A DNA stretch of 64,000 nucleotides. Source: Streptomyces sp. B21-083. GTDB taxonomy: Bacteria > Actinomycetota > Actinomycetes > Streptomycetales > Streptomycetaceae. The notes below the pieces were generated by a model, which saw nothing but the letters and a program-made list of their open reading frames with translations, searched no databases and was not told the DNA's origin. Positions 42,109 to 60,377 of this stretch are shown here, piece after piece. The stretch covers positions 2,976,001 through 3,040,000 of the forward strand of contig NZ_JARUND010000002.1 of assembly GCF_036898825.1 (NCBI RefSeq), in the 5' to 3' direction. The first letter of the stretch is position 1; the number at the start of each line of letters is the position of its first letter. The position numbers and the translations under genes were made by a program.

Positions 42109-42404
42109 GGGGACTCCCTCGATGAGGCGTGCGGTAAGGCGCGTAGAGCTGGTTCACCACTGATGGTGATTCCGGATGAAGGTTAACAAGCGCTTGACCC
42201 TCACCTTCGGTGAAGCCCCGGCATCGGTGACGGAACGAGGAACCGCGGTGCGGGCCGGCTGCGGCGCCTGACGCGGGTGCGGTGGGCGGTCGGAAGTGAC
42301 CGTGAATGTGTTTCTTCCGGCAGCCGATGGTGTACGGAGGGATCGGGACGGAAGCAGTCCCTGCGATGGTTGCGACCGATGTGACGAGCCAAGGAGTACG
42401 ACGC

Positions 42405-45453: not shown

Positions 45454-45518
45454 CGCCCCGCGCCCTTCAGCGGCTCCGCCAACTCCACCTTCGCGCCCTT
45501 GTTCCGCCAGGCGCAGAG

Positions 45519-45550
45519 TTGCCTGGAAGACATAAAGGATAAATACCCAT
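45519..45550 (+). promoter_or_regulatory. AT-rich candidate promoter upstream of mbl
   Basis: In an otherwise GC-rich 218-bp gap there is a TTGCCT followed after about 15 bp by TAAATA (45540-45545) in an AT-rich run. It precedes mbl by about 125 bp. The boxes are approximate; this is the only promoter-like patch in the gap. Confidence 0.3.
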
Positions 45551-45671
45551 ACGGCGGCACCCCACCCGGCCCCCTACAACAGGCGCCCCACTCCCCCGCC
45601 ACCGCACGATGCCAGTGGAGGCCCGCCGACCGGCGCGGCCCGTACGGTCTGCGCTCTCGGGAGGATCTGCC

Positions 45672-46709
45672 ATGACCGTCAGTCTGGAACAGATGCGCCG
45701 CTGCCATTTCGCCGTCGACCTCGGGGCCGCGCGGACCCGCGTCTACGTCAAGGGTGAAGGGATCGTCGTCGACCAGCCGTCGGTCGCCGCCGTGAACACC
45801 AAGACCGGTGCGCTGATCGCGGTCGGGGAGTTCGCCGAGAAGATGACGGGGCGTACACCCCACTACATCCGAGTCGTGCGGCCCGTGTCCGGCGGAACCG
45901 TCGTCGACATCGAGATGGCGCAGCGCATGCTGCGGCACCTGATCGGCGACAAGGTCCGCCGCAGCCTGCGCCGCAAGCCCTTCCTGCGGGCCGCCGCCTG
46001 CTACCCGCACGACGCCGACCCGCTCGCGCAGCGCGCGGCCATCGAGACGCTCGTCGGTCTCGGCGCCCGGCGCGTCGAACTCGTGGACACGCTCGTCGCC
46101 GCCGCCGTGGGCTGCGGACTGCCCGTCGAGCAGCCCGAGGCGACCATGGTCATGGTGTGCGGCGCCGCCGCCACCCAGCTCGCCGTTCTCTCCCTCGGCT
46201 CGATCGTGACCGCCGAACGGATCCCGGTCGGGGGCGAGGCCGTCGACCACGCGATCGTGCAGCACCTGCGCCACCAGCACGAACTGATGCTGCCCAGCCA
46301 GTCCGTACGTCCGCTGCAGCTCGCCCTCTCCGGCAACGGGCTCACCGCCCACGGCCCGTCGTCCACCGAGATCCACGGCCGGGACGTCGCCACCGGCCTC
46401 GCCCGCTCCGTCCAGGTCGACACCGCCGCCGTGCGTGACGCCATCCAGACGCCGCTGACCGCCGTACTCGACGGCATCGGCAAGGTGCTGCGGGACTGCC
46501 CGCCCGATCTGGTGGCCGACCTCGCCGACCGCGGCATCATGATGGTCGGCGGCAGCGCGCTGCTCCCCGGGTTCGACCAGATGCTGCGGCAGGCCACGGG
46601 CATGCCGGTGCACATCGCCGAACGGCCGGACGTGTGCGCGGTGCAGGGCCTCGGGTACATGCTGGAGGGCCGTATCGAGCCGCTGGTACTGGATCCGCTG
46701 GCCACCTGA
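45672..46709 (+). CDS. mbl: MreB-like actin homologue Mbl
   Basis: A 345-residue bacterial actin. ATP-binding motifs are present: HFAVDLGAARTRVYVKGEG near residue 12, VSGGTVVDIEMAQRMLRHLI, and MMVGGSALLPGFDQML near 300. The phosphate-2 loop (MVMVCGAAATQLAVLSL) departs from the strict MreB wording, as expected for the divergent Streptomyces Mbl protein that helps build spore walls. ATG 45672 has GGGAGG at 45658-45664; an ATG at 45609 is in frame but has no RBS. It is followed 35 bp later by the histidine kinase gene. Confidence 0.87.
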   Translation: MTVSLEQMRRCHFAVDLGAARTRVYVKGEGIVVDQPSVAAVNTKTGALIAVGEFAEKMTGRTPHYIRVVRPVSGGTVVDIEMAQRMLRHLIGDKVRRSLRRKPFLRAAACYPHDADPLAQRAAIETLVGLGARRVELVDTLVAAAVGCGLPVEQPEATMVMVCGAAATQLAVLSLGSIVTAERIPVGGEAVDHAIVQHLRHQHELMLPSQSVRPLQLALSGNGLTAHGPSSTEIHGRDVATGLARSVQVDTAAVRDAIQTPLTAVLDGIGKVLRDCPPDLVADLADRGIMMVGGSALLPGFDQMLRQATGMPVHIAERPDVCAVQGLGYMLEGRIEPLVLDPLAT

Positions 46710-46744
46710 GACCGCCCACCCGACCCGGCGGCCCCACCATCCGC

Positions 46745-48196
46745 ATGCCAGTCGACCCGCCCCCACCTCCCTCTCCTCCCCTGCCGTCCCGTCTCGAAGC
46801 CGTACTGGGCATCGGTTCCGATCTCGAACTGCGCACCACCCTCCAGCACATCGTGGACGGCGCGGCCGAGTTGACCGGTGCCCGGTACGCGGGGCTCGGT
46901 ATGGCCGACCCCGGGCACGACGGTCTCGTGGAGGTCCGCAGGGCCGATCCGGGGCGCGCCGAACGGGAGGGCGTCGCCGCCATCGACGTACCGATCCTCG
47001 TGGAGGGCGAGGAGTTCGGGCGGCTGTATCTCGCCGAGAAACTCGACGGGTCCCCGTTCGGCGACGACGAGAGGGAGTTGCTGCGGGTGCTGGCCACACA
47101 GGCCGGCATCGCGATCGGGAACGCCCGGCTGTACGAGACCGCGCGGCAGCGGGAGCGCTGGATCGAGGGTGCCGCCGCCGTCACCACCGCGCTGCTCACC
47201 GGCAAGGCCTCCGACGACGCGCTGATGATCGTCGCGGACCGCGCCCGGCTTCTCGCCGACGCCGCCGCGGGCGTCATCCTGCAGCCGACGGCCACCGGCG
47301 GCATGGAGATCGTGACCGCCTCCACGTTCGACGACCCCGGTGACATCGTCGGGACCGTCATCGCCCCGGGCAGTCCCGTTCTCGTTCAACTCCTGGGCGG
47401 GGAGCCGGTGTTCGTCGACGACTCGGCGACCGACCCGCGGATGACGACCCCTGTACGGCACCGGTTCGGACCCAGCATGATGCTGCCGTTGCAGGCCGAG
47501 GGGAGGCTGATCGGCACGCTCGCGCTGCCGCGCCGACGCGGCGACCGCCCGTACACCGGCACGGAACGGCTCCTCGCGACGCAGTTCGCCTCACAGGCGG
47601 CCCTCGCGCTCGTCCTCGCCGACGCCCGGCGCCGCCGCGCCCGCCTCGCGGTGTACGAGGACCGCGACCGGATCGCCCGGGACCTGCACGATCTCGTCGT
47701 CCAACGGCTGTTCGCCACCGGCATGATGCTGGAGTCCACCCAGCGCCGGGCCGGCGACGACGCCGACGTGCGCGAGATCCTCGGGCACGCCGTCGACGAA
47801 CTCCAGGCCACCGTCCAGGAGGTCCGGACGACCATTTTCGCCCTCCAGCAGTCCCCCGCCGACGCGCCGACAGGCTTGCGCGGCAAGGTACTTCGTGAGA
47901 CGGCCGGTACGACGGCGGTACTCGGCCGCCGGCCCTCCGTCCGCTTCACCGGGCCCGTCGAGCACCGCGTCCCCTCCCCCGTCGCCGCCCGGCTCCTCAC
48001 CGCCCTGCGCCGCACCCTCGCCACCGCCGTACGCCGTCCCGGTGTCACCCGCGTCGAGGTCACGGTCGACGCGACGGCGGTCCTGCCGGACGGCCGGGAA
48101 GCCGTACGGCTGACGGTCTACGTCGATGACACAACGGGCGCAGGCCCGGGTACGACGGTCATCTGGCAGGCACCGCTGGGAGACGGCACCCTGTAG
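46745..48196 (+). CDS. GAF-domain histidine kinase (DevS/NarL-type partner) with degenerate ATPase domain
   Basis: A 483-residue cytoplasmic sensor. Two GAF domains (about residues 25-160 and 175-310) are followed by a HisKA_3 helix pair with the phospho-acceptor in RIARDLHDLVVQRLFATGMM near residue 316. The expected HATPase domain is short and lacks a recognisable N-box Asn and G-boxes (LLTALRRTLATAVRRPG, then WQAPLGDGT), so kinase activity is doubtful. There is no response regulator next door. ATG 46745 follows mbl by 35 bp and has no strong RBS, so it may be coupled to mbl. Confidence 0.83.
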   Translation: MPVDPPPPPSPPLPSRLEAVLGIGSDLELRTTLQHIVDGAAELTGARYAGLGMADPGHDGLVEVRRADPGRAEREGVAAIDVPILVEGEEFGRLYLAEKLDGSPFGDDERELLRVLATQAGIAIGNARLYETARQRERWIEGAAAVTTALLTGKASDDALMIVADRARLLADAAAGVILQPTATGGMEIVTASTFDDPGDIVGTVIAPGSPVLVQLLGGEPVFVDDSATDPRMTTPVRHRFGPSMMLPLQAEGRLIGTLALPRRRGDRPYTGTERLLATQFASQAALALVLADARRRRARLAVYEDRDRIARDLHDLVVQRLFATGMMLESTQRRAGDDADVREILGHAVDELQATVQEVRTTIFALQQSPADAPTGLRGKVLRETAGTTAVLGRRPSVRFTGPVEHRVPSPVAARLLTALRRTLATAVRRPGVTRVEVTVDATAVLPDGREAVRLTVYVDDTTGAGPGTTVIWQAPLGDGTL

Positions 48197-48231
48197 AGAG
48201 GTCACGGACCGTCGACGGCGGAGGGCAGCCA

Positions 48232-48852
48232 GTGACTGACATCGACACGCGTGACGACATGTCCGTCGGCACTCGCGTGGGCACGTTCATGGACACCGGT
48301 ATGCACACCGGCATGCATTCAGGTACGGACACCGGTATGGATACCGGCACGGGCACGCGCGTCGGGGCGCGCGTCCGCACGCGCATCGGGGTGACCGGGC
48401 ACCGCTCGATCCCCGCCGCCGTTCTGCCGTCCGTCCGTACGGGCATCCGCCGGCAGTTGCGGGGCGACGAGGAACTGGAGGCTCTGAGCTGCCTCGCGGC
48501 CGGGGCCGACCAGTTGTTCGCCGACATGGCCCTGGACCGGGGCATACCCGTCACCGCCGTGATCCCCGGCATGGACTACGAGACCCACCTCGGCGACGCC
48601 GACACCCGCGCCGCATACCGCCGCATCCTCAACTCCTGCCGTACACAAGTGAATCTGCCCGAGGAGGCGACACACGAAGAGGCCTACTTCGCGGCCGGCC
48701 GCTGGATCGTCGACCACGCCGACCGGCTGGTCGCGGTATGGGACGGTCAGCCCGCACGAGGACTCGGCGGCACCGGGGACGTGGTGGCGTACGCCCGCCG
48801 CACCGGCGTTCCGGTGACGGTGCTGTGGCGACCGGGGGTGCTGCGCGGCTGA
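48232..48852 (+). CDS. SLOG-superfamily nucleotide-sensor-like protein
   Basis: A 206-residue protein whose domain (about residues 48-206) has the Rossmann-like SLOG pattern: RIGVTGHRSIP at the start, CLAAGADQLFADMALDRGIP, and ADRLVAVWDGQPARGLGGTG with a glycine-rich nucleotide pocket. SLOG proteins are predicted to bind or process nucleotide-derived signals in conflict systems and often pair with SLATT membrane effectors. The adjacent convergent gene encodes a SLATT-like protein. The N-terminal 45 residues are a strange repetitive run of MDTG/MHTG/TDTG units. GTG 48232 follows GGAGGG; later in-frame ATGs could remove the repeat. Confidence 0.75.
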   Translation: MTDIDTRDDMSVGTRVGTFMDTGMHTGMHSGTDTGMDTGTGTRVGARVRTRIGVTGHRSIPAAVLPSVRTGIRRQLRGDEELEALSCLAAGADQLFADMALDRGIPVTAVIPGMDYETHLGDADTRAAYRRILNSCRTQVNLPEEATHEEAYFAAGRWIVDHADRLVAVWDGQPARGLGGTGDVVAYARRTGVPVTVLWRPGVLRG

Positions 48853-48861
48853 GTTCGGGGG

Positions 48862-49857
48862 TCAACCGCCGAACCGCACCAGCCAGTCGGTGTGCTGCGG
48901 TGAGACGACCCGCTCGGCCTCGGCCACCGCCTCAGCCCACCCCGCCTCCGTCACCGTCTTCACCATCGAGACGCGCAGTGTCTCCAGGTCCTGTTCGATG
49001 AGGGAGTGGGCATACGTCAACGGCCGGTGCCGCCGCACCTCCTGCCAGGCCACCCCGGCAGCCGCGCCGGCGCTGAGAAGCCCGGTGAGATCCCAGCCGC
49101 CGATCACGCCGAGGGCCCTGAGCACAGCCGCCAGCAGGGCGAGCCCTGTCAGGACGGCCGTGACGGAGGACCAGCGCACGGAGGCGCGATGCGACTCGGA
49201 GGCGCGGTTCTTGTACCAGACGAACTGTTCCAGCAGCCGGTCCCGGAGATAGATCTCCCGGCGAGCGGCGAACGGCTTGGCGCGCACGGCCCGCATGACC
49301 GGGGTGATCTGCCCGGTTCCACGGGCGTGGGCCCCGTTGCGGGAGTCCTCCCAGCCCACCCGTCTGAGTTCCCGGAGCCGCTCCTCCAGCCGTTCCGCGA
49401 ACAGCCCGTCGGGGTCGGAGACCCGGGAGTGGAACGGCCCCCCGTGGACCATGTACTGCCAGGCAAGCGACTTGAGGAGCTCCGCCACATCGCGGTGCGC
49501 CCGCCACTGGGCACGGGCCCGGCGTCGGGCGATATGCAGTCCGATCGCAATCGTGAACGCGTAAAGCAGAGCCGCAAATGCCGCTGGAACATGACTGTTG
49601 AAACGCTCCGCCAGCATCGCCATCGCGGTCGCCGACAACAGGAGCAGCAACTGCGTGCGCACCGCGTAGAGGGACTCACTCTGACGGCTCAGAGCCCGCC
49701 GATCGCTCACGACAAACAGTGGCGGAAGATCATTCTCACTCAGCGTGACACTGGGCCCCGGAGTACCGGCGTGCAATTGACTCACCCCCGTGGTCATTGC
49801 CCACGCATTAGCCAACTCTTGGTGGTCAGAGCCTGAAGTCGAATGGGCGGATTCCAT
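48862..49857 (-). CDS. SLATT/DUF4231-type membrane protein, divergent from the fxs locus
   Basis: A 331-residue protein. A hydrophobic hairpin lies at about residues 69-85 and 91-109, a long charged helical region follows (QWRAHRDVAELLKSLAWQYM, EERLRELRRVGWEDSRN), and a second hydrophobic pair comes at about 225-265, then a helical tail. This fits the DUF4231/SLATT group predicted to form membrane pores when triggered. It is convergent with the SLOG gene (10-bp gap) and divergent from the FxsA precursor gene, sharing its upstream region. ATG 49857 is used; an internal ATG at 49797 is possible. Confidence 0.75.
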   Translation of the reverse strand: MESAHSTSGSDHQELANAWAMTTGVSQLHAGTPGPSVTLSENDLPPLFVVSDRRALSRQSESLYAVRTQLLLLLSATAMAMLAERFNSHVPAAFAALLYAFTIAIGLHIARRRARAQWRAHRDVAELLKSLAWQYMVHGGPFHSRVSDPDGLFAERLEERLRELRRVGWEDSRNGAHARGTGQITPVMRAVRAKPFAARREIYLRDRLLEQFVWYKNRASESHRASVRWSSVTAVLTGLALLAAVLRALGVIGGWDLTGLLSAGAAAGVAWQEVRRHRPLTYAHSLIEQDLETLRVSMVKTVTEAGWAEAVAEAERVVSPQHTDWLVRFGG

Positions 49858-49974
49858 CCTGGGGGTCGCCCTCCGGTATCGTCCGCGTCAAAACCAGACT
49901 TTCTTGGTGCCGGTCGGTCCCAACCGGCGACAAGGGGGCTGGACAGCGCCAGCAGAAGGAGCTACGAGCCAGTC

Positions 49975-50151
49975 ATGAGCCTCTCTCAGTCACAGGCAAC
50001 GCCCGTCAGCGGTACTCGGTCGACCTTCCAGCCGCTGACCCCGCTGGCGGACCTCTCCCGACACTCGCATGCGGTCATGAACATGATCGGACGGTTGCCG
50101 GACAGCCCCGACAGGCGTCCGACAAACCCCACCTTCAACTCGGCGGTTTGA
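49975..50151 (+). CDS. fxsA: FxSxx-COOH RiPP precursor peptide FxsA
   Basis: A 58-residue peptide starting MSLSQSQATPV and ending PTNPTFNSAV, so its last five residues are F-N-S-A-V, the F-x-S-x-x-COOH signature that names the family. The leader holds TFQPLTPLADLSRHSHAVMN, a conserved-looking recognition stretch. No cysteines. In this family a radical SAM enzyme (FxsB) joins residues of the C-terminal motif into a small cyclophane. ATG 49975 has a purine-rich AGAAGGAG about 13 bp upstream. The maturase gene follows 141 bp later, after a strong hairpin. Confidence 0.9.
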   Translation: MSLSQSQATPVSGTRSTFQPLTPLADLSRHSHAVMNMIGRLPDSPDRRPTNPTFNSAV

Positions 50152-50175
50152 GCCTGAAGGTTCACGCGGACAGGT

Positions 50176-50202
50176 GTATCCGACGGCACCACCGTCGGAT
50201 GC
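50176..50202 (+). terminator. Hairpin between fxsA and fxsB (attenuator candidate)
   Basis: Arms 50176-50186 and 50192-50202 form an 11-bp stem (one wobble) around a 5-nt loop, 24 bp after the fxsA stop. A leaky terminator here would give much more precursor than maturase mRNA, as is usual in RiPP clusters. Confidence 0.6.
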
Positions 50203-50292
50203 CCCCCATGTCACAGGTGTCACGCTCGTCAACTTCGGTAACATTTCGACGAGTTGGCCTCGGGTAGGGTAGTGGGTTTGCGATGATGCAGT

Positions 50293-52449
50293 GTGACGAG
50301 CCCCTCCCTCCAGCAGCTGGTCCTCAAGGTGCACAGCAGATGTGACCTGGCCTGCGACCACTGCTATGTGTACGAGCATGCCGACCAGGGCTGGAAAGCT
50401 CGCCCGGTAGTCATCTCCGAAGAGGCGCTCACCCGGACCGCCCGGCAGTTCGCCTCCTACGCCGAGGCTCACAAGCTTCCTTCCGTGACGATCATCCTCC
50501 ACGGGGGCGAGCCCCTCCTCTGTGGCCCTACGCGGCTCAGAAACATCTGCGCGGAACTCACACGGGCCCTCACCCCGGTCACCACACTGGACCTCCAGAT
50601 TCACACCAACGGAATCCAGCTGAGCCCGCGGCATCTGGACGTCTTCGCGGAATTCGGCGTCAAGGTGGGTATTTCGCTCGACGGTGACCGCGCCGCCAAC
50701 GACCGGCACAGACTCGACCGCAGAGGCCGCAGCAGCTACGACCGGGTACTGCGCGGAATCGATCTGCTGCGCACCCCCGCGTACCGCCACCTCTTCGGCG
50801 GCCTACTCTGTACCGTCGATGTCGCGAACGACCCCGTCACGGTGCACGAATCACTTACGGCGCTTGATCCTCCCCGTATCGATTATTTGCTACCGCACTC
50901 GACTTGGGAGAACCCGCCGCCGAACCCCTCCGGGTCACCGACCCCGTACGCCGACTGGCTGCTCGCCGTGTTCGACCTCTGGGAGAAACAGGGACGCAGG
51001 ATTCCCGTACGGACCTTCGAGTCGGTGCTCAGCACACTGCGCGGCGGTCCCAGTCTGACCGAGGCGATGGGACTCGCCCCGTCCGACCTCGCGGTGGTCG
51101 AGACGGACGGCAGTTTCGAGCAGGCGGACTCGCTCAAGACGGCGTTCGACGGAGCGGCGGCCACGGGGTACGACGTCTTCCGGCACGGGTTCGAGGAGTT
51201 CGCCCGGCACGAGGGGGTGCTGGCCCGCCAGCGCGGGCTCGCCGGGGTCAGCGAGGAGTGCCGTCGCTGTCCGGTGGTCGACTCCTGCGGCGGCGGCCTG
51301 TACGCCCATCGCTACAGTGCCGAACGCGACTTCGACAACCCTTCCGTCTTCTGCGCCGACCTGCGCGCCCTGGTGGAGGGCATCGCCGAGCGGGTGACGA
51401 ACCGGGCGCTCGCCCCGTCGGTCTGCCGGCCGGACGAACTGAGCCTCTCCCAGCTGCGGTTGGACCGGGCATTGCTGCGGGTCGTGCACGACGACCCGAT
51501 GCCGGAGCCCGGCTGGGACGACGCCTGGCGGACTCTGCTGGAGCTGGACGCCGGGGACGACACGGTCCGGCACCTCAACGAGGTTCTCGCCCACCCCTAC
51601 GTCCGCACCTGGCTGCTCCGGTCCCGGCACGGAGCAGCGGATCTCCCCCGGTTCATGGCTCTGGCCTTCTCGGCGGCCGTGCGGGCCGGCGCCGATGTGA
51701 TGCTCTGCTGGGACCAGTCCGAACGCGCCCTCCATCTCCCCGCGCTGGGCACGTTCACGCTGGCGGAGCCGGGTCGGGTCGAGGTCAAGACGACACCGGG
51801 CGGCTTCTGTGTGTTCGGCCCGTCGGGCCCCGTACAGGTGCAGCTCGCCGACGCCGCTGCCGCCGTCCAGTGGCGTCCGCTGGACACCGTGGAACTGTCC
51901 GGTCGGCCGGCCCTGGTGGTCGACGACGCGGACTCCTACCGCGACTGCTTCCCCGTTCCGCTCGCCCCCGGGCCGACCCCGGCGTCCTTCGCCGAGCGCC
52001 TGAGGCGGGCGTACGACCTGCTCGACGCCCGGCTGCCTCGGTGGTCCGAGGACCGCAACGCGTTGCTCGTCACCACCGTCACTCCGCTCGCAGCGGGCAG
52101 CGGGCTGCGGCTCGGCACGCACGGGCCGGGGGCGCTGGGTGCGGCGGTCGACTTCACGCCGGAGGAGTTCGTGCGTGAACTCCCGCGTCTGGGGCGGCGG
52201 GCCAGGCTCACCTCCCTCCGGGAGACAAGTGACCTGAACGTCCTGGGCAACCGGGCGGGCCGCCTCCTCGACGAGGCCTTCGAGCAACTCGGCAACTCCC
52301 GTCGCGAGGACGCCGTACGCGCCCTGGTCGAGCTGACCGCGCTCCCGGAGAACGAACTCACGCAAACGGGCGCGGTGTTGGCCGCACAACTCTGGACGGA
52401 ATGGGCGAAGCACCCGGACCCACCGACCCGGAAGCCCCACCGTGCCTGA
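50293..52449 (+). CDS. fxsB: Radical SAM/SPASM maturase FxsB with extended C-terminal domain
   Basis: A 718-residue maturase acting on FxsA. The radical SAM cluster motif is CDLACDHCYVY (Cys17, 21, 24), followed by the HGGEPLL glycine motif and SLDGDRAANDRHR. A SPASM-type auxiliary cluster site lies near residues 324-354 (CRRCPVVDSCGGG, FCADL). After residue 370 comes a 350-residue extension resembling the beta-hydroxylase (HExxH) domain fused to some FxsB proteins, but no HExxH is present, so it matches the inactivated-extension class. GTG 50293 lies 22 bp after a TAGGGT hexamer. Its stop overlaps the acetyltransferase gene by 8 bp. Confidence 0.9.
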   Translation: MTSPSLQQLVLKVHSRCDLACDHCYVYEHADQGWKARPVVISEEALTRTARQFASYAEAHKLPSVTIILHGGEPLLCGPTRLRNICAELTRALTPVTTLDLQIHTNGIQLSPRHLDVFAEFGVKVGISLDGDRAANDRHRLDRRGRSSYDRVLRGIDLLRTPAYRHLFGGLLCTVDVANDPVTVHESLTALDPPRIDYLLPHSTWENPPPNPSGSPTPYADWLLAVFDLWEKQGRRIPVRTFESVLSTLRGGPSLTEAMGLAPSDLAVVETDGSFEQADSLKTAFDGAAATGYDVFRHGFEEFARHEGVLARQRGLAGVSEECRRCPVVDSCGGGLYAHRYSAERDFDNPSVFCADLRALVEGIAERVTNRALAPSVCRPDELSLSQLRLDRALLRVVHDDPMPEPGWDDAWRTLLELDAGDDTVRHLNEVLAHPYVRTWLLRSRHGAADLPRFMALAFSAAVRAGADVMLCWDQSERALHLPALGTFTLAEPGRVEVKTTPGGFCVFGPSGPVQVQLADAAAAVQWRPLDTVELSGRPALVVDDADSYRDCFPVPLAPGPTPASFAERLRRAYDLLDARLPRWSEDRNALLVTTVTPLAAGSGLRLGTHGPGALGAAVDFTPEEFVRELPRLGRRARLTSLRETSDLNVLGNRAGRLLDEAFEQLGNSRREDAVRALVELTALPENELTQTGAVLAAQLWTEWAKHPDPPTRKPHRA

Positions 52450-53932
52450 GCGGCTCCCCCAGACGGCCACCCCGGCCCCCTCACCCAGGGCGACCCCTAC
52501 CACCCACGCACCCGACCCGGCCTCCTCCCCGGCGACCACTCCAGGCCGACCCCCACGACCGACCACCCCCACGAACACGACCGACCAACCCCTCCCCGCG
52601 GCAGCCACCCCGAACCTCCCGCCCCAAACGGCCCCAACCACCCACGCACCCGACCCGGCCTCCCCGGCGACCACTCCAGGCCGACCCCCACGACCGACCA
52701 CCCCCACGAACACGACCAACCGACCCCTCCTCGCGGCAGCCACCCCGAACCTCCCGCCCCAAGCGGCCCCAACCACCCACGCACCCGACCCGGCCTCCCC
52801 GGCGACCACTCCAGGCCGACCCCCACGACCGACCACCCCCACGAACACGACCGACCAACCCCTCCCCGCGGCAGCCACCCCGAACCTCCCGCCCCAAACG
52901 GCCTCGGCCTCCCGCAGGGCGGTCGCCTCGGACCAGGGACCGCGGGCAACCACCCCGACTCGGGCCGGCCGCGCGAACCCGGTCGGGTCAGCCCGCCACA
53001 CCGCAAGCGCCCCGGAAGAGGCGCCTCTGCCAACTCCGGCGCCGCCCATCCCCGCAGACGCGACCGGCCCGGCTCCCCAGACCCCGACCGCCCCGGGCCT
53101 CCCGCCTCGGCCACCGTTCACCCCCACGGCCGGCACCCGTCCCGGCCCTGCCGTCGCATCCCACTCCGCCGGTCAACTACGGGACGCGATCGCCGAGTTG
53201 GGTGTCCGCCCCGGCGCTCCCCTCATCGTCCACGCCTCCCTGCGCGGCACCGGTCTTGGTCCCTCGCTCGTACGGGACTGTCTGCTCGCCGCGCTGGGAG
53301 CCGGCGGCACCCTTGTCGTGCCCGCGTTCACGCCGGAGAACTCCGACACCTCGCGGGCGTACCGGGTAGCCACCGAGGGGCTGACCGAGCGGGAGAAGGC
53401 CGTCCACCGGGCCTCGATGCCGCCCTTCGCCGCGGACAGCACGCCGTGTCCCTCCACGGGGGCGCTGGCCGAATGTGTGCGGACCACTCCCGGTGCCGTC
53501 CGCAGCACCCATCCGCAGACCTCCTTCGCCGGACTCGGGCCCAGGGCCGCGGAGTTGCTCGGCCGGCACGACCCGCACTGCCATCTCGGTGAGCGCTCGC
53601 CGCTGGCCGCGCTGTACGCGGCGGATGCCCAGATCCTGTTGCTGCGCGTCGGGTTCGAGGTGTGCAGCGCGTTCCATCTGGCCGAGTACCGGACGACGCC
53701 GCCCACACCTCGGCGTACGTACCGGTGCGTGGTGGGCGAGCGGGGGAACTGGATCTCGTACGAGGATCTCGCCCTGGACGACAGCGACTTCGGCGCGATC
53801 GGGAAGCGGCTCCCGCGTGAACTGGTGGTGGAGCGGGAATGGGCCGGAAAAACGGTCACGCTTTGCGCCATGCGCGCCGTTGTGGACCACGCCGTCGATC
53901 AGATGGCCAGTTATCGCCCCGGATTGACGTAA
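52442..53932 (+). CDS. AAC(3)-family N-acetyltransferase with tandem-repeat N-terminus, in the fxs locus
   Basis: A 496-residue protein. Residues about 240-490 form an aminoglycoside 3-N-acetyltransferase-like domain (APLIVHASLRGTGLG, GGTLVVPAFTPENSD, STHPQTSFAGLGPRA, CHLGERSPLAALYA with the conserved His). The first 240 residues are low-complexity Pro/Thr/Ala and contain three nearly identical 45-residue repeats (each including TTHAPDP, GRPPRPTTPTN, AAATPNLPP). The GTG start overlaps fxsB by 8 bp, so it is co-translated with the maturase. Acetylation of the RiPP or of a linked amine is more likely here than drug resistance. Confidence 0.85.
   Translation: MPERLPQTATPAPSPRATPTTHAPDPASSPATTPGRPPRPTTPTNTTDQPLPAAATPNLPPQTAPTTHAPDPASPATTPGRPPRPTTPTNTTNRPLLAAATPNLPPQAAPTTHAPDPASPATTPGRPPRPTTPTNTTDQPLPAAATPNLPPQTASASRRAVASDQGPRATTPTRAGRANPVGSARHTASAPEEAPLPTPAPPIPADATGPAPQTPTAPGLPPRPPFTPTAGTRPGPAVASHSAGQLRDAIAELGVRPGAPLIVHASLRGTGLGPSLVRDCLLAALGAGGTLVVPAFTPENSDTSRAYRVATEGLTEREKAVHRASMPPFAADSTPCPSTGALAECVRTTPGAVRSTHPQTSFAGLGPRAAELLGRHDPHCHLGERSPLAALYAADAQILLLRVGFEVCSAFHLAEYRTTPPTPRRTYRCVVGERGNWISYEDLALDDSDFGAIGKRLPRELVVEREWAGKTVTLCAMRAVVDHAVDQMASYRPGLT
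52501..52908 (+). repeat. Three tandem 135-bp repeats inside the AAC(3)-like gene
   Basis: Near-identical units begin at 52501 (138 bp, one extra codon), 52639 and 52774 (135 bp each), keeping the frame. Very few differences at DNA level indicate recent amplification, so copy number may vary between strains. Confidence 0.85.
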
Positions 53933-54025
53933 AACAAGCAACCCCGGCGAGCCGACCGTCGGGCACATTGTTGGTTCCGGTCAGGTGACCCCGGCGCTGG
54001 GGCGCACCGACGGGCAGGGGGGCGT

Positions 54026-55384
54026 GTGGAAAACACCGAACGGGGTCGGGACCGGGTGCCGGACACCCAGCCCTACTTCTTCCTTTCCTACGCCCACACA
54101 CCACCCTGGGGCACGGGCGGCGGAGACCCCGATCACTGGGTGCACGTCCTGTACCGGGACCTGTGCAACCACATCATGGCGCTCACCGATCTGCCCGCCG
54201 GTTCCCAGGCCGGTTTTATGGACCGGGAGATGCACTCCGGCGAGGGCTGGCCGGAGAAGCTCAGCGAGAACCTCGCCAAGTGCCGGGTGTTCGTACCGCT
54301 GTTCTCGCCCCGCTACTTCACCAGCGAGATGTGCGGCCGCGAGTGGTTCGCCTTCCACGAGCGGGTCCTGCACGCCAGGGCCACCGGCGCCGGCTCCGCG
54401 TCCGTCATCGTCCCCGCCCTGTGGACCCGGGTGGACTACGACCAACTCCCGGACTCCGTACGGCACATCCACCTCGACCACGCGACCTACGGCGACCGCT
54501 ACGCCACCAACGGGATCTACGGCCTGATCAAACTCAACCGGCTGCACGACGAGTACGAGGAGACCGTGCTGGGCCTGGCGCAGCGGATCGTGCGGGTCGC
54601 CCACGAGTCACCGCTGCCGCCGAGCAGGCCCCGCAACTACGAGAGCACGCCCAGCGCGTTCAAGCCGCGCGGCTCGGGCCCCCGGCACATCCACCTCACC
54701 GTGGCCGCACCGACCCGCGACAGCGTCCCCGAGTACCGCGACATCCGGCCGTACGGCGAGGACGCGCAGGACTGGAACCCGTACCATGGTGAGTCCACTC
54801 GTCCTCTGCCGTCGCTCGCCGAGGAACTCATCCGCTCCCTCGACTACCGGATCACGGTGTCCTCCTTCGACGACGAGGACACCGGGGAGCCCCAGACGGT
54901 GTCGGGCGGCAACTCCCCGGACGACAACGGCGATCAGGGCGAGAAGGACGACAAGGCGGTGGGCAGGCCGGGCATCCTGCTGGTCGACCGCTGGGTGCTG
55001 ACCGACGAGGAACGGCGGCGGCGGCTCAAGATCTTCGACTCGCACGCCCGGCCGTGGGTGAGTGCCATCGTCCCGTGGAACCGCCTCGACCTGCAGTGTC
55101 ACAGCTCGGAGGGGCGGCAGCTCACCGAGGAACTGGAGCGCACCCTCCCGTTGATCCTGGACCGGGGCCGGCGCACCGACTGCCGGATCGCCGTGATCGG
55201 GGTACCCACGCTCAAGGCCTTCACCGACGTGCTGCCCTCCGTCGTGGCCCATACGACCCGGCAGTTCCTCAAGCACGCGGAGGCCCATCCGCCGCCGGGG
55301 CCGCACATCCCGAGGCCCCGCCTGATGGGCCCCGTCCAGCTGCAGTACCCGGAAGCGGGATCCAACGACGGAGGAGAAGCATGA
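54026..55384 (+). CDS. fxsC: TIR-like protein FxsC
   Basis: A 452-residue protein. A TIR-like domain occupies about residues 17-160 (QPYFFLSYAHTPPW, FMDREMHSGEGWPEKLSENL, CRVFVPLFSPRYFTSEMCGR). A Pro/Arg-rich linker leads to the FxsC C-terminal domain (about 210-435: EDAQDWNPYHGESTRPLPSL, WVSAIVPWNRLDLQCHS). TIR domains can hydrolyse NAD or mediate signalling; which applies here cannot be told. GTG 54026 follows AGGGGGGC; other GTGs nearby are possible. Its stop overlaps fxsT (ATGA). Confidence 0.88.
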   Translation: MENTERGRDRVPDTQPYFFLSYAHTPPWGTGGGDPDHWVHVLYRDLCNHIMALTDLPAGSQAGFMDREMHSGEGWPEKLSENLAKCRVFVPLFSPRYFTSEMCGREWFAFHERVLHARATGAGSASVIVPALWTRVDYDQLPDSVRHIHLDHATYGDRYATNGIYGLIKLNRLHDEYEETVLGLAQRIVRVAHESPLPPSRPRNYESTPSAFKPRGSGPRHIHLTVAAPTRDSVPEYRDIRPYGEDAQDWNPYHGESTRPLPSLAEELIRSLDYRITVSSFDDEDTGEPQTVSGGNSPDDNGDQGEKDDKAVGRPGILLVDRWVLTDEERRRRLKIFDSHARPWVSAIVPWNRLDLQCHSSEGRQLTEELERTLPLILDRGRRTDCRIAVIGVPTLKAFTDVLPSVVAHTTRQFLKHAEAHPPPGPHIPRPRLMGPVQLQYPEAGSNDGGEA

Positions 55385-58300
55385 CGGCCGTGCAGAACGG
55401 ACGTATCATCACCTTCTACTCATACAAGGGCGGTACCGGGCGCACCATGGCCCTCGCCAACACGGCGTGGATCCTCGCCGCCAGCGGCAAGCGGGTCCTG
55501 GCCGTCGACTGGGACCTGGAGGCGCCGGGCCTGCACCGCTTCTTCCATCCGTTCCTGGAGCCGAACGCACTGGTGGCCACCACCGGAGTCATCAACATCA
55601 TTCATGACTTCGCGTGGGCGGCGACCACCGGCCCGCAGCGCACCGGCGACTGGCAGGACGACTACGCGAACGTCGAGCAGCACGCCATCTCCCTCACCCC
55701 GGAACGGTTCGGGATGAGCTTCAAGGACGGCGGTTCGCTCGACTTCCTGTCCGCGGGCCGCCAGGACCGCGCATACTCGGCGACGGTGTCCTCCCTGGAA
55801 TGGGACAACTTCTACGACCGGCTGGGCGGCGGCGCGTTCCTCAAGTCGCTGCGCACCAACATGAAGAAGTCGTACGACTACGTCCTCATCGACAGCCGTA
55901 CCGGACTGTCCGACAACGCGGACATCTGCACCATGCAGATGCCCGATGTCCTGGTCGACTGCTTCACCCTCAGCGACCAGTCCCTGGACGGCGGCGCCGC
56001 GGTGGCCCGCAGCGTCGAGGACGGTTCCCTTCCGCACCCGATCCGGGTGCTGCCCGTGCCGATGCGTATCGACGAGGGTGAGAAGGACAAGGTCGACGCC
56101 GGCCGGGCGCTGGCCCGGCTGCGCTTCCAGGGGCTGCCCAAGGGGCTCAAGGGCGAGAAACTGGGCCCGGACGAGCAGACGGCCTACTGGGGCAGCGTCG
56201 AGATCCCCTACCGCCCCTACTACGCCTACGAGGAGACCCTCGCGACCTTCGGCGACGCGAAGGGCGATCCCAAGTCACTGCTGTCCGCGTTCGAGCGGCT
56301 CACCCAGGTCATCACCGACGGCGACGTCACCTCGCTGCCGCCGATCCCCGAGCCGGTGCGGCTGCGCTGCCGTGACGCGTACCTCAGGCGGCGCCCGCTG
56401 ACCAGCGCGGCCAATGTGGTCGTGGCGTACTCGGCGGAGAACCGGATGTGGGCCGACTGGGTCGAGTCGCTGCTCAAGCGGGTCGGCTGCAACGTCGTGA
56501 CGCACGACATCTCCGGCGGCCCCGTCGAGCGCGCGGACTCGGCCACCCGCACCGTGATCCTTTTGTCGACCGCGTTCCAGAAGTCCCGGTACGCCGACGC
56601 CGTCTGGCGCACCCTCACCGACACCGGCATGGACTCCCCGCCCGGTACGACGGTTCCGCTCCGGGTCGACGAGGTGCGGCTGCCCGAGGCCTACCTCGAC
56701 CACAACCCGGTGGACCTGCACCGGTTCGACGAGACACAGTGCGCCGCCGCGGTGCTGCGCGCCCTGGGACTGCCCGGGCAGGCACCGGAGGCCGGACCGC
56801 ACGCGGCCCGCTTCCCCGGCAACACTCCGGCGTATCTGAGCGCACCGCAGCGCAACAACACGTTCACGGGCCGGGACGTCATCCTGGAGCGGATCCGCGA
56901 CCAGCTCGGCGGCGGTGTCTCCGCCGGCCCCTCGCAGCCCCAGGTCCTGTTCGGGCTCGGCGGTGTGGGCAAGACCCAGGTCGCGCTGGAGTACGTACAC
57001 CGCTTCATGGGGGACTACGACCTGGTCTGGTGGACGTCCGCCGAGCACGAGGACGATGTCGTCGCCTCGCTCGCCGAACTCGGCACCCGCATCGGTGCGC
57101 CCGGCCGTGACGACATCACCATGGCCAGCAAGGAAGCCCGCCAGATGCTGTCGCGGGGCACGCCGACCAGCCGCTGGCTGCTGGTCTTCGACAACGCCGA
57201 CGACCCGGCCGCGCTGACTCCGTACTTCCCGACCGGCGGCAGCGGGCACATCCTCATCACCTCCCGCAACCAGGCCTGGGCGCAACAGGGTTCGGCCCAG
57301 CTCGTCGACGTCTTCCTCCGCGAGGAGAGCGTCGAACACCTCACCCGGCGGGCCAGGGGGCTGACCCCCGAGGCGGCCGACCAGGTGGCGCTGGCGGTGG
57401 GCGACCTGCCGCTGGCCGTCGAGCAGGCGGCGGCCTGGCTGGCCGAGACGGCCACGCCCGTGGAGACGTATCTGCGGCAGCTCGCCGAGCAGACCACCGA
57501 CGTCCTGGACCTCAACCAGCCCGCCGACTATCCGAAGACGGTCGCGGCGACCTGGAACGTGTCCATCTCCCGGCTGAAGGAACGTTCTCCCGCCTCGGTA
57601 CGGCTGTTGCAGCTGTGCGCGTTCCTCGCTCCGGAGCCGATCTCCTCCGACCTGCTCTACAGCAAGGAGATGATCGACGCCCTCAAGCCGTACGACCCGG
57701 CGCTCCAGGAGCCGTTGCTGCTCGGCCGGGTCGTCCAGGAGATCGGGCGGTTCGCGCTGGCCAAGGTCGACCAGGTCAGCAACAGCATCCAGGTCCACCG
57801 GCTGGTCCAGGCCGTGATCCGCGCCCAGTTGACCGAGGAGGAGCAGCGCCACGCCCGGCATGTCGTCCACACCGTGCTCGCGGGCGCCCGTCCCGACGGT
57901 GACGAGCCGATCGACGACCCCGAGAGCTGGCCCCGGTTCGGCGTCATCTGGCCGCACCTCACCGCCTCCGACGCCCGCAACTGCACCGAGTCCGAGACGC
58001 GCCGGCTGCTCATCGACCGGGTCCGCTACTACTGGAAACGCGGTGACTTCCCCAACGCGCAGAAACGCGCCGAGGATCTGCTGGACCACTGGAAGCCGCT
58101 GCGCGGCGAGGACGACGTGCAGTATCTGTATCTGCGCTGCCAGCTGGCCAACGTGCTGCGCTCGCAAGGGCGTTACATCGAGGCCCGGGACATCGACACC
58201 GAACTGCTGGACCGCCAGCGCCGGGTCCTCGGCCCCACGCACCCGCACACGTACGTCACCACGTCCAGCCTCGCCAGCGACCTCGCCGCCCTCGGTGACT

Positions 58301-59316
58301 ACCGGTCCGCGGTGGACCTCGCCCGTGAGGCGCACGACGGGTTCAGCGAGATCTTCCACGAGTCCCACCCCAGGACCCTCAACGCGGCCAACAACCTCGC
58401 CCTCGCCCTGCGCATGGTGGGCCGCTACGGCGAGGCCCGCGACCTCGACCAGGAGACGCTCGACCGACGCCAGCGCGTACTGGGGCCGGAGCATCCCTAC
58501 ACGCTGGCCTCGGCCGAGGGGCTGGGCCGCGACCTGCGCGAGGTCGGCCGGTACGCGGAGTCGGTGGCGGTGTTGTCACAGGCGTACGACACGCACAAGC
58601 GCATCCTCGGCAAGGAGTTCCCGGGCACCCTGCGGTGCGCCAAGTCCCTCGCGGTGTCGCTGCGTCGGGCCGGACAGTTCGAGGACGCCCGGCGGCTGAC
58701 GACGGCGACGCAGGACCAGTACCGGAGCCAGTACAAGGAGCCGACGCCGGACTCGCTGGCCTGCGATCTGAACATGGCGGCCGACCTGTTCGCGGCCGAC
58801 GACCGGGAGCGGGCCCGCGAGGTCGCCCGGGAGGCGCTGGCCAGGTACATGGACGTACCGGGTGAGGCCCACCCGTACACCCAGGCCGCGCTGAACAACC
58901 TCGGTATCTACCACTGGGGCTGCGGCGACACGGAGAAGGCGGACACGGTGTTCCGGCAGGTGCTGCGGCGCATGGGCGAGGTGCTGGGGCCGCAGCATCC
59001 GCACTCCCTGTTCTGCGGGGTCAACTACGCCAACGTACTGGCCGGCCAGGGCCGTCTCGACGAGGCCCGGGAGCTGGAGGAGAACGCGGTGGTCACCTTG
59101 CGCCAGATCCTGGGCCCGCATCACCCGGAGACCCTGGCCGTGGTCGCCAACTCCGCCTTGACACTCAGCGAGTTGGGCCATGAGGCGGAGGCGGAGCGGC
59201 GGCACGGCGAGGCGCTGACGGAGCTGCGGATGCTGCTCGGCGACGAGAACGGGATCACCCGGTTCGCCCACAGCAGGCGGCGGGTGTACCGGGACCTGGA
59301 GCCGCTGGCGGTGTGA
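55381..59316 (+). CDS. fxsT: FxsT: KGGT-ATPase / TIR / NB-ARC / TPR protein of the FxSxx-COOH system
   Basis: A 1311-residue multidomain protein, translationally coupled to fxsC (ATGA overlap, RBS GGAGGAGA). N-terminal ParA/MinD-like ATPase with deviant Walker A YSYKGGTGRTMALANTA (residues 14-30) and VDWDLEAPGLHRFF. A TIR-like domain at about 343-465 starts NVVVAYSAENRMWADWVESL. NB-ARC at about 492-770 has P-loop FGLGGVGKTQVALEY and LVFDNADDPA. A TPR region of repeated LGPxHPxT units spans about 880-1270. The architecture is that of a STAND sensor/effector. The start at 55381 is preferred over a long upstream open frame lying within fxsC. Confidence 0.9.
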   Translation: MTAVQNGRIITFYSYKGGTGRTMALANTAWILAASGKRVLAVDWDLEAPGLHRFFHPFLEPNALVATTGVINIIHDFAWAATTGPQRTGDWQDDYANVEQHAISLTPERFGMSFKDGGSLDFLSAGRQDRAYSATVSSLEWDNFYDRLGGGAFLKSLRTNMKKSYDYVLIDSRTGLSDNADICTMQMPDVLVDCFTLSDQSLDGGAAVARSVEDGSLPHPIRVLPVPMRIDEGEKDKVDAGRALARLRFQGLPKGLKGEKLGPDEQTAYWGSVEIPYRPYYAYEETLATFGDAKGDPKSLLSAFERLTQVITDGDVTSLPPIPEPVRLRCRDAYLRRRPLTSAANVVVAYSAENRMWADWVESLLKRVGCNVVTHDISGGPVERADSATRTVILLSTAFQKSRYADAVWRTLTDTGMDSPPGTTVPLRVDEVRLPEAYLDHNPVDLHRFDETQCAAAVLRALGLPGQAPEAGPHAARFPGNTPAYLSAPQRNNTFTGRDVILERIRDQLGGGVSAGPSQPQVLFGLGGVGKTQVALEYVHRFMGDYDLVWWTSAEHEDDVVASLAELGTRIGAPGRDDITMASKEARQMLSRGTPTSRWLLVFDNADDPAALTPYFPTGGSGHILITSRNQAWAQQGSAQLVDVFLREESVEHLTRRARGLTPEAADQVALAVGDLPLAVEQAAAWLAETATPVETYLRQLAEQTTDVLDLNQPADYPKTVAATWNVSISRLKERSPASVRLLQLCAFLAPEPISSDLLYSKEMIDALKPYDPALQEPLLLGRVVQEIGRFALAKVDQVSNSIQVHRLVQAVIRAQLTEEEQRHARHVVHTVLAGARPDGDEPIDDPESWPRFGVIWPHLTASDARNCTESETRRLLIDRVRYYWKRGDFPNAQKRAEDLLDHWKPLRGEDDVQYLYLRCQLANVLRSQGRYIEARDIDTELLDRQRRVLGPTHPHTYVTTSSLASDLAALGDYRSAVDLAREAHDGFSEIFHESHPRTLNAANNLALALRMVGRYGEARDLDQETLDRRQRVLGPEHPYTLASAEGLGRDLREVGRYAESVAVLSQAYDTHKRILGKEFPGTLRCAKSLAVSLRRAGQFEDARRLTTATQDQYRSQYKEPTPDSLACDLNMAADLFAADDRERAREVAREALARYMDVPGEAHPYTQAALNNLGIYHWGCGDTEKADTVFRQVLRRMGEVLGPQHPHSLFCGVNYANVLAGQGRLDEARELEENAVVTLRQILGPHHPETLAVVANSALTLSELGHEAEAERRHGEALTELRMLLGDENGITRFAHSRRRVYRDLEPLAV

Positions 59317-59416
59317 GGCGGGGTGCGGTGAGGTCCGGGACGGGGGCGTCGGCATCGGGTGGTCGCCGGCGCTTCACCCGGCAGTCGGCCGGGGCCCGCC
59401 GTCACGTTCCCGTCGT

Positions 59417-59433
59417 CCCGCCCGAAAGGCGGG
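59417..59433. terminator. Hairpin between convergent fxsT and hydrolase genes
   Basis: CCCGCC (59417-59422) and GGCGGG (59428-59433) with loop CGAAA lie between the 3' ends of two convergent genes. A bidirectional terminator is likely, although no T-tract follows. Confidence 0.4.
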
Positions 59434-59495
59434 CCTGGAGGCGTCAGGTGCCCGCGCCCGGTGCGGCGGGCGTGCCTGGCGTCCCGGCAGGACCT

Positions 59496-60377
59496 CTAGG
59501 GCTGAGTGGTGTCCGCGAGCAGCCAGTTGAGGGCGATCGGCAGGGCGCGCAGGGACGCGAAGTGGGCCGCCGCCGGTTCCAGGACGGCCGTGGAGCGTGG
59601 GATGCGGGCCGCGAGCCAGGAGGAGTGCGAGGCGGGCGAGAAGACGTCCAGCCCGCCGTGCCACAGCAGCACCGGCACATCGATCTGTGCCGGGTCGAAT
59701 CCCCACGGGCCGGTCAGCGCGAGGGCGTCGTCGATCCAGCCGTACGGTGAAGTGCGCAGCGCCTCAAGGTAGTTGCGCAGGAGCATCGAGCGGATGGTGT
59801 TGTCGGAGACGATCATCCGGTCGTCGTCGGTGAGTTCCGTGCGCAGTTCCTCGAGGAGCTTCGCCGGATCGCTGCGGATGGCCGCCGACCGCGGGATGAG
59901 CCGGGCCGCGAACCGCTCCGGATCGGTGAACGCCGTGCTGAACTCGTTGACGTTGGAGGGGGCCATGCCGGCGAACCAGTCGAGCCCTTCCGCGTCTCTG
60001 GGCGCGAGCCCGACCAGCGCGGCGGCCCGGGTCACCCGGTCCGGCAGCAGCGCGGCACAGGCGAGGGCGTGCGGGGCGCCACCTGATCGCCCGGCGACCG
60101 CGAACCGGTCGAGCCCTAGGGCGTCGGCGACCACGGAGACGTCGTTGACCACGTCGACGATCCGCCGGCCCTTCTTGCGGTCCGAACCGCCGTATCCGGG
60201 ACGGTCGTAGCTGATGAGGCAGGCGCCGTGCTGATACAGGAACATCGCGCGGGGCCGGGGACCGACCCGGCTGCCGGGTGTGCCGTGCAGGAGGAACACG
60301 GGGTGTCCGTTCGGGTCTCCCGAGATCTCGACCCGTAAGCGCCGCCCGTCCGCGGTCCGCACATGGTCCGCCACCAC
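59496..60377 (-). CDS. Alpha/beta-hydrolase
   Basis: A 293-residue cytoplasmic alpha/beta-hydrolase: VFLLHGTPGSRVGPRP, ISYDRPGYGGSDR, nucleophile elbow AGRSGGAPHALA with Ser near residue 95, the acid in WHGGLDVFSP and the late histidine in PAAAHFASLRAL. No signal peptide. The start is GTG 60377 (or 60374) after a G-rich RBS. It is convergent with fxsT, so probably not part of that system. The substrate is unknown. Confidence 0.85.
   Translation of the reverse strand: MVADHVRTADGRRLRVEISGDPNGHPVFLLHGTPGSRVGPRPRAMFLYQHGACLISYDRPGYGGSDRKKGRRIVDVVNDVSVVADALGLDRFAVAGRSGGAPHALACAALLPDRVTRAAALVGLAPRDAEGLDWFAGMAPSNVNEFSTAFTDPERFAARLIPRSAAIRSDPAKLLEELRTELTDDDRMIVSDNTIRSMLLRNYLEALRTSPYGWIDDALALTGPWGFDPAQIDVPVLLWHGGLDVFSPASHSSWLAARIPRSTAVLEPAAAHFASLRALPIALNWLLADTTQP

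What the first reader, a model, noticed from the sequence alone, without database searches (positions are those of the whole stretch)
48232..59316. FxSxx-COOH cyclophane RiPP locus joined to TIR, STAND, SLOG and SLATT parts: a candidate defence or signalling system
In one 11-kb stretch there is a precursor ending FNSAV, a radical SAM maturase, an acetyltransferase, a TIR-like protein, a 1311-residue ATPase/TIR/NB-ARC/TPR protein, and divergently a SLATT membrane protein next to a SLOG sensor. The fxs core is a named family set with unclear biology. Apart from the peptide and its enzymes, the parts are ones seen in bacterial immune systems (NAD-cleaving TIR, nucleotide-sensing SLOG, pore-forming SLATT, STAND). 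One model is that the modified peptide is a signal or guard that keeps the TIR/STAND proteins silent until infection or kin contact. Coupling is strong: fxsB/acetyltransferase overlap by 8 bp and fxsC/fxsT by 4 bp.
Basis: partly seen in the sequence, partly recalled or inferred. Interest (0 to 1): 0.9.

Follow-up and report, generated by a model that had tools for sequence, protein, structure and literature searches.

The report
Cyclophane-peptide TIR system with SLOG-SLATT arm
In Streptomyces, a gene set that makes a small cross-linked peptide and a plant-NLR-like TIR switch is repeatedly accompanied by a predicted nucleotide sensor and a membrane protein, which suggests a signalling circuit that ends at the cell membrane.

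Summary
In 197 genomes of the order, 51 of 60 SLATT_3 matches lie within 25 kb of fxsB, about 0.5 expected. Of 111 fxsB loci read, 55 carry this SLOG, each with a membrane partner: SLATT in 49, a TrkA/RyR channel-like protein in 6 of a second family. The SLOG is fused to SLATT in one locus and folds like YpsA, more distantly ThsA. FxsC keeps the TIR glutamate in 63 of 68 rows; FxsT's TIR has V, L, A or T there in 64 of 69. Best reading: FxsT is an NLR-like switch, FxsC its TIR enzyme, SLOG plus channel the output arm; the peptide's gating role is inferred. The link is not absolute: 12 of 80 named SLATT loci lack fxs or SLOG nearby. Antiphage function is untested. The core was described in 2020; the output arm is a new variant.

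The parts
48232..48852 (+). SLOG (YpsA-like Rossmannoid) protein; conserved part about 48367-48852, ahead of it a low-complexity N-terminal stretch
48862..49857 (-). Tandem SLATT (SLATT_3 + SLATT_1) membrane protein
   Evidence: PF18184 8.5e-48, PF18181 2e-40; three hydropathy peaks called at 65-83, 92-110, 234-252; a fourth hydrophobic stretch near 255-275 is my reading by eye
49975..50151 (+). fxsA, FxSxx-COOH precursor, 58 aa ending FNSAV
   Evidence: like precursors found by pattern upstream of fxsB in 142 of 172 loci tried
50293..52449 (+). fxsB, radical SAM/SPASM cyclophane maturase fused to an inactivated HExxH (beta-hydroxylase) domain
   Evidence: TIGR04269 582.8/370, NF040587 369.7/225; CxxxCxxC present, no HExxH
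52442..53932 (+). AAC(3)-fold N-acetyltransferase with a Pro/Thr-rich N-terminal region
   Evidence: PF02522 4.7e-62; below the cut-off of each of the five AAC(3) models matched
54026..55384 (+). fxsC, TIR protein with the glutamate of the CGxE motif (start may be 54056)
   Evidence: NF040588, TIGR04276; Glu in 63 of 68 rows
55381..59316 (+). fxsT, KGGVGR ATPase - TIR without that glutamate - NB-ARC - TPR
   Evidence: NF040586 1037/300, NF047398 139.8/90; NB-ARC P-loop Lys in 69 of 69 rows
59496..60377 (-). alpha/beta-hydrolase, convergent with fxsT, conserved partner of long-FxsB loci
   Evidence: PF00561 4.6e-18; 59 of 65 and 18 of 21 long-FxsB loci, 0 of 23 short ones

Best explanation
This is an NLR-like TIR/STAND signalling system built around a cyclophane peptide, with a separate membrane output arm. 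FxsB cross-links Phe and Ser of the FNS motif at the end of FxsA (inferred from a characterised relative); the acetyltransferase and the hydrolase probably finish or turn over the peptide (inferred). FxsT is the switch: TPRs sense, NB-ARC oligomerises, and its TIR, which lacks the glutamate, serves as an adaptor that recruits the TIR enzyme FxsC (inferred from residues and domain order). FxsC then makes an NAD-derived nucleotide (inferred). The SLOG protein reads it and opens the SLATT membrane protein, depolarising or arresting the cell (inferred from the conserved pair, the SLOG-SLATT fusion and the swap to a TrkA/RyR protein). The mature peptide most likely sets the threshold of FxsT (inferred, weakest step). 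Shown here: the parts, their recurrent linkage, the division between glutamate-bearing and glutamate-less TIRs, the SLOG fold (by prediction), and exchange of the membrane partner.
For: Linkage: 51 of 60 SLATT_3 matches within 25 kb of fxsB, 43 of them at 0.4 to 2.1 kb, about 0.46 expected for random placement. SLOG in 55 of 111 fxsB loci, with SLATT in 49 and with TrkA/RyR in 6, alone in 0. The pair sits with fxs at site I, at site II, in an inverted-operon form of site II, and at two other places (L081, L082). SLOG and SLATT of L082-L084 nest in the site I clade, while their FxsB belongs to far lineages, so the same pair stands beside different fxs operons. Fusion: the same SLOG family joined to tandem SLATT in L091, next to a TIR protein. 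Five of the 6 strong SLATT_3 loci without fxs lie beside another TIR protein. TIR residues: FxsC Glu in 63 of 68; in FxsT the equivalent position is V, L, A or T in 64 of 69, and the Glu of the solved TIR 3h16 aligns with that position. The SLOG fold is close to YpsA and ShosA, weaker to TRPM2 and ThsA. Purifying selection: pooled dN/dS SLOG 0.24, SLATT 0.19, FxsC 0.14, FxsT 0.13. MscB, a radical SAM enzyme of the triceptide group, makes a Phe-C4 to Ser-Cbeta link (PMC11002830, passages).
Against: Fxs does not need the pair: 19 of 65 long-FxsB loci of the window's family have no SLOG, two of them at the same site with the same flanks (L096, L098). Nor does the pair always need fxs: 8 of 80 named SLATT loci have SLOG-SLATT and no intact fxs in the held flank; 2 of these hold under 3 kb on that side, L124 has operon remnants and L159 a 61-residue FxsB-like remnant; in L132 and L149 other genes stand in its place. 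Four of 80 have SLATT and fxs without SLOG, one of them at a contig end. In the class sample none of 76 SLOG matches outside the window's family lies within 25 kb of any of 53 FxsB matches, and 20 further SLOG loci that I fetched have other neighbours. The match of the FxsC TIR to a solved TIR is weak (E 0.056). Residue 407 of FxsT, one before the glutamate position, is D or E in 33 of 69, and 5 of 69 residues at the position itself were not listed, so an alignment slip is not wholly excluded. No enzyme activity, ligand or interaction was shown; no SLATT model could be made.
Confidence: 0.45

Rival explanations
1. SLOG-SLATT is an independent two-gene unit (for example a nucleotide-gated stress or TIR-responsive device) that happens to be held beside fxs by old synteny; it does not act with the fxs proteins.
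For: Relatives share the sites by descent; 8 of 80 named loci keep the pair without intact fxs nearby; many fxs loci lack the pair; the SLOG family has other neighbours elsewhere.
Against: The pair accompanies fxs at several unrelated sites and beside different fxs lineages, persists through inversion of the fxs operon, and in another family SLOG again sits beside fxs with a different membrane partner.
Confidence: 0.2
2. The system is a chromosomal physiological switch (development, envelope stress or NAD homeostasis) and not antiphage; the peptide is a conserved intracellular ligand. This concerns the role and does not exclude the mechanism above.
For: Core-like flanks, no tRNA in 36000-64000; no SLATT relative in 72,556 plasmid records (E up to 1e-5) and 50,697 phage records (E up to 1e-3); the last six residues of FxsA change less than the rest (15 of 216 against 296 of 1758 compared positions), so the product does not look diversifying.
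Against: Patchy distribution (58 genomes of the window's family have a long FxsB in a 197-genome sample), replacement of whole operons in place, exchange of effectors and one SLOG relative labelled as plasmid-borne (P0087) would suit a conflict system; the related systems were read as conflict systems by Kaur et al. (PMC7159879).
Confidence: 0.35
3. An ordinary RiPP antimicrobial or kin toxin, with SLATT as immunity or export protein.
For: A RiPP precursor with maturase and tailoring enzyme is present; SLATT has hydrophobic segments.
Against: No transporter among the eleven proteins scanned from 42306 to 60377; the core is conserved, not diversified; FxsC and FxsT have no place in this model; SLATT proteins without fxs lie beside TIR proteins in 5 of 6 loci.
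Confidence: 0.07

Closest known systems
Standalone FxSxx peptide-processing system with AP-ATPase (Kaur et al. 2020, eLife, PMC7159879; section 24 read, other passages seen)
   Same: FxSxx precursor, radical SAM/SPASM enzyme, AP-ATPase with TIR, TPRs and an inactive MinD/ParA-like domain; predicted conflict role
   Different: That section names a zincin-like peptidase as core, inactivated here; it does not mention SLOG, SLATT, TrkA/RyR or an alpha/beta-hydrolase with FxSxx
NCBIfam FxSxx-COOH set (FxsB TIGR04269, FxsBH NF040587, FxsC NF040588/TIGR04276, FxsT NF040586)
   Same: All five models exceed their cut-offs
   Different: The SLOG matched no NCBIfam model and the SLATT only general SLATT models
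Thoeris (ThsB TIR with ThsA SIR2-SLOG; architecture recalled)
   Different: SLOG stands alone and is paired with a membrane protein, no SIR2; a STAND protein and a RiPP are added
TIR-SLATT and SLOG-SLATT gene pairs (TIR-SLATT in phages: PMC9503650, passages)
   Same: SLATT predicted there as an ADP-ribose-derivative-regulated membrane effector
   Different: Here bound to a peptide-maturing TIR/STAND operon and exchangeable for a TrkA/RyR protein
Triceptide radical SAM enzymes (XncB, OscB, MscB; PMC11002830, passages)
   Same: Three-residue cyclophane chemistry, Phe-Ser link by MscB
   Different: FxsB of this window is not assayed; it carries a dead HExxH domain

Membership tests
FxSxx-COOH (fxs) system | short precursor ending F-x-S-x-x | tested here: met
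   ends FNSAV
FxSxx-COOH (fxs) system | FxsB radical SAM/SPASM over NCBI cut-off | tested here: met
   582.8 against 370 bits
FxSxx-COOH (fxs) system | FxsC and FxsT over NCBI cut-offs | tested here: met
   231.2/130, 156.4/55, 1037/300
FxSxx-COOH (fxs) system | Phe-Ser cyclophane in the product | not testable with these tools
   needs mass spectrometry or NMR
Standalone peptide-processing system of Kaur et al. 2020 | active zincin-like metallopeptidase (HExxH) | tested here: not met
   FxsB carries the lost-HExxH extension and no HExxH; other long-FxsB loci keep HEFQH
Standalone peptide-processing system of Kaur et al. 2020 | AP-ATPase with TIR and inactive MinD/ParA-like domain | tested here: met
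   KGGVGR ATPase, TIR_2, NB-ARC, TPR; KGGTGR Walker A variant conserved
VMAP ternary system | vWA, MoxR and VMAP genes adjacent | tested here: not met
   none among the eleven proteins scanned between 42306 and 60377; genes further out were not scanned
SLOG superfamily, YpsA-like | SLOG Rossmannoid fold | tested here: met
SLOG superfamily, YpsA-like | match to a curated SLOG sequence model | tested here: not met
   no Pfam or NCBIfam hit
SLATT | SLATT domain and hydrophobic hairpins | tested here: met
   PF18184, PF18181; hydropathy peaks
Thoeris | ThsA with SIR2 or other effector fused to SLOG | tested here: not met
   SLOG is a separate 206-aa protein; no Thoeris model among PADLOC hits
Thoeris | TIR-made cyclic ADP-ribose variant activates the SLOG protein | not testable with these tools
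   biochemistry needed
Antiphage defence system | match to a named defence system | tested here: not met
   PADLOC, six proteins: only pVip 36 bits to FxsB and candidate PDC-M28B 75 and 35 bits to FxsT
Antiphage defence system | protects against phage | not testable with these tools
   plating assay needed

The most novel reading that the evidence does not exclude
A bacterial circuit with the logic of an animal or plant NLR pathway: a ribosomal cyclophane peptide licenses a STAND switch, the switch recruits a separate TIR enzyme through a catalytically dead TIR, and the nucleotide made is read by a SLOG protein that opens one of several interchangeable ion-channel-like effectors (SLATT in Streptomyces, TrkA/RyR in a sister family).
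Probability: 0.3. Interest if true: 0.88.

Novelty: new variant of a known kind. Interest (0 to 1): 0.64.

Why it matters
The fxs gene set is named in NCBIfam and was predicted to serve conflict, but I found no experiment on its function in the held library. If SLOG-SLATT is its output arm, the question becomes directly testable: activate FxsT, follow NAD and membrane potential, and ask which part the peptide controls. It would also be a case of a RiPP acting inside the cell as the regulator of an NLR-like switch, and of a nucleotide sensor with exchangeable membrane effectors.

Tried and rejected
Sequence searches for the SLOG in Pfam, NCBIfam and the PDB found nothing; the fold comparison settled it. 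A single-sequence PDB search with the FxsC TIR found nothing; a profile found only a weak flax TIR match. In one search FxsA seemed to evolve under dN/dS near 1 between the window and L116/L117 (1.02, 1.32; 0.08 against L115). Pooled over 36 row-disjoint pairs it is 0.42, faster than the other genes but purifying, and slowest in the core, so the arms-race reading was dropped; three rows in those pairs (L057/L167, L045/L191, L050/L189) enter twice as the same DNA. My impression from the order sample that SLOG-SLATT never occurs without fxs failed in the named sample (8 of 80). Membership in an ordinary mobile defence island was considered and not supported, with one SLOG relative labelled as plasmid-borne against this. 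Literature searches for fxs with SLOG or SLATT gave only Kaur 2020 and the 2022 virus survey as relevant; Burroughs 2015 and Haft and Basu 2011 are not held, so an earlier mention there cannot be excluded. The fxsB listing was cut, so short-FxsB loci are a partial sample; a weak SLATT_3 match in G024, counted as a miss in the 51 of 60, lies 161 bp from an FxsB seen only. The SLATT structure job was never accepted by the busy machine.

Full report

Is the SLOG/SLATT link real? In 197 genomes of the order, PF18184 gives 60 matches in 58 genomes, 57 of them strong. Set against FxsB, 51 of 60 are within 25 kb: 43 at 0.4 to 2.1 kb, 41 of these on the opposite strand, and 8 at 7.5 to 10.2 kb. Random placement predicts about 0.46 (taking 8 Mb per genome and the FxsB listed). 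That expectation ignores common descent, so I looked for independence. Gene maps from my own ORF caller show the pair beside fxs at site I (AMP-binding, ACCA, MreB, GAF kinase), at site II (DUF1684, trypsin-like protease; domains), at site II with the fxs operon inverted between hydrolase and SLATT (L061, L062, L065, L068, L071, L073), and at two further places (L081, L082). In L083 and L084 a different fxs type (short FxsB, order A-C-T-B) stands beside it. On trees (quick search, SH-aLRT support), SLOG and SLATT of L082-L084 nest in the site I clade (30 and 33 rows that I chose) while their FxsB lies far away (74 rows; L082 is a long branch). So an fxs operon was exchanged next to a resident pair, or the pair moved. 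L096 and L098 have site I flanks and a 78% identical FxsB domain but neither gene. Among the 74 rows the two are both present in 49 and both absent in 25, at the score limits used there.

Counts over the 111 fxsB loci that I read. Window's family, long FxsB, 65 loci: SLOG+SLATT 46, SLATT alone 1 (L080, SLATT about 30% identical); short FxsB, 22 loci: 3; unclear type, 2 loci: 0. Second family (f3), long, 21 loci: SLOG with a TrkA_N/RyR protein 6, SLATT 0; short, 1 locus: 0. SLOG without a membrane partner: 0 of 55. The TrkA/RyR profile was built from two of those six, so four are new finds. Pfam shows both domains in L097, L112 and L195, and TrkA_N in the part of L211 tested; L206 and L212 rest on the profile. 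The hydrolase accompanies 59 of 65 and 18 of 21 long-FxsB loci and 0 of 23 short ones. Three of the 49 SLOG-SLATT fxs loci (L048, L070, L077) lack FxsC.

Outside fxs. Six strong SLATT_3 matches have no fxs. Five lie beside another TIR protein: TIR-WD40 in L087-L090 (two tested by Pfam, two by profile) and PfkB-TIR in L086; L085 shows none. In L091 the SLOG family is fused to tandem SLATT, next to an LSDAT-SLATT fusion and a TIR protein. In the class sample the SLOG family occurs in 61 of 296 genomes. Outside the window's family none of 76 matches lies within 25 kb of one of 53 FxsB matches. Twenty such loci that I fetched, 17 of them from other families, show no fxs, SLATT or TrkA/RyR match; their neighbours look like XRE-type regulators (by eye), caspases (Pfam, two tested) and others, and L277 has a TIR-WD40-like hit of 73 bits. 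The sensor is thus versatile, and its tie to fxs was seen only in this order.

Limits. In 80 named Streptomyces SLATT loci, 68 have SLOG and fxs, 8 have SLOG without intact fxs, 4 have fxs without SLOG. These were the best 80 of 299, and 7 of them are the same DNA as loci of the first set. Two of the 8 hold under 3 kb on that side; L124 keeps operon remnants and L159 a 61-residue FxsB-like stretch; in L132 and L149 other genes stand there. So the pair can outlive the operon.

Mechanism. Rows for the residue counts are the called genes of usual length: 68 FxsC and 69 FxsT. In FxsC the CGxE glutamate is kept in 63 of 68 (Q in 3, H in 2), and a weak profile match (E 0.056) places it on a glutamate of a flax rust resistance protein TIR (that this residue is catalytic is recalled). 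In FxsT the same place is V, L, A or T in 64 of 69; the other 5 were not listed; the glutamate of the solved TIR 3h16 aligns with it. The residue before it is D or E in 33 of 69. NB-ARC keeps its P-loop lysine and Walker B aspartate in 69 of 69. This suggests a switch with an adaptor TIR and a separate TIR enzyme. Given SLATT's predicted role as an ADP-ribose-derivative-regulated membrane effector (PMC9503650, passages), SLOG-SLATT is the natural output. The peptide: 142 precursors in 172 loci tried were found by a pattern that itself demands F-x-S-x-x. Over 36 row-disjoint pairs, three rows of which enter twice as the same DNA, the last six residues change in 15 of 216 compared positions against 296 of 1758 elsewhere, so the product is nearly constant and a diversifying toxin or kin signal is unlikely. 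MscB links Phe C4 to Ser Cbeta (PMC11002830, passages).

Defence or not. PADLOC names no system for the six proteins scanned. No SLATT relative was found in 72,556 plasmids or 50,697 phages at the limits used, but one SLOG relative is labelled as plasmid-borne (P0087, 73% identical). Flanks are core-like and no tRNA lies in 36000-64000. Patchiness, effector exchange and operon replacement point the other way. I keep both roles open.

What is known. Kaur et al. 2020 (section 24 read) describe the fxs core as a peptide-processing conflict system, including standalone ones with TIR-like AP-ATPase partners and an inactive MinD/ParA domain. In the passages seen, SLATT appears in that paper only with GTPase-centric systems. 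My searches found no paper in the held library that joins fxs with SLOG, SLATT or TrkA/RyR; two key older papers are not held. Verdict: a new variant of a known kind, well supported as genetic linkage, moderately as mechanism, unproven as defence.

Noticed in passing
L097, L112, L195, L206, L211, L212: fxs loci of a sister family carry the SLOG beside a TrkA_N/RyR channel-like protein instead of SLATT.
   Followed up: yes
L091:7550-12133: SLOG-SLATT fusion, LSDAT(SLOG)-SLATT fusion and a TIR protein in one cluster without fxs.
   Followed up: partly
L271:7089-8512, L279:7039-8516: The same SLOG family directly after a caspase (Peptidase_C14) gene; L275 looks alike by sequence. A possible SLOG-caspase pair.
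   Followed up: partly
L136:9549-9806: An ORF in the place of fxsA ends FDAAI: Ser of the FxS motif is Ala, in a locus with SLATT but no SLOG.
   Followed up: no
window 52442-53160: The acetyltransferase has about 240 Pro/Thr-rich, repeat-like residues ahead of its domain; the median length of its cluster in 31 loci is 270 aa against 496 here.
   Followed up: no
L080:1620-3544: Two divergent SLATT_3-SLATT_1 genes side by side next to the hydrolase of an fxs locus, without SLOG.
   Followed up: partly
L086:10642-13795: Two genes of one cluster next to a SLATT gene; the first, tested by Pfam, is PfkB fused to a CAP12/Pycsar-type TIR domain.
   Followed up: partly
L132, L149 (site I): The fxs operon is replaced by other short genes while SLOG-SLATT stays.
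   Followed up: partly
L263-L270, L276: Members of the SLOG family lie near genes that look like XRE-type regulators in other actinomycete families (by eye).
   Followed up: no
P0087: A SLOG relative, 73% identical, is labelled as lying on a Streptomyces plasmid.
   Followed up: no
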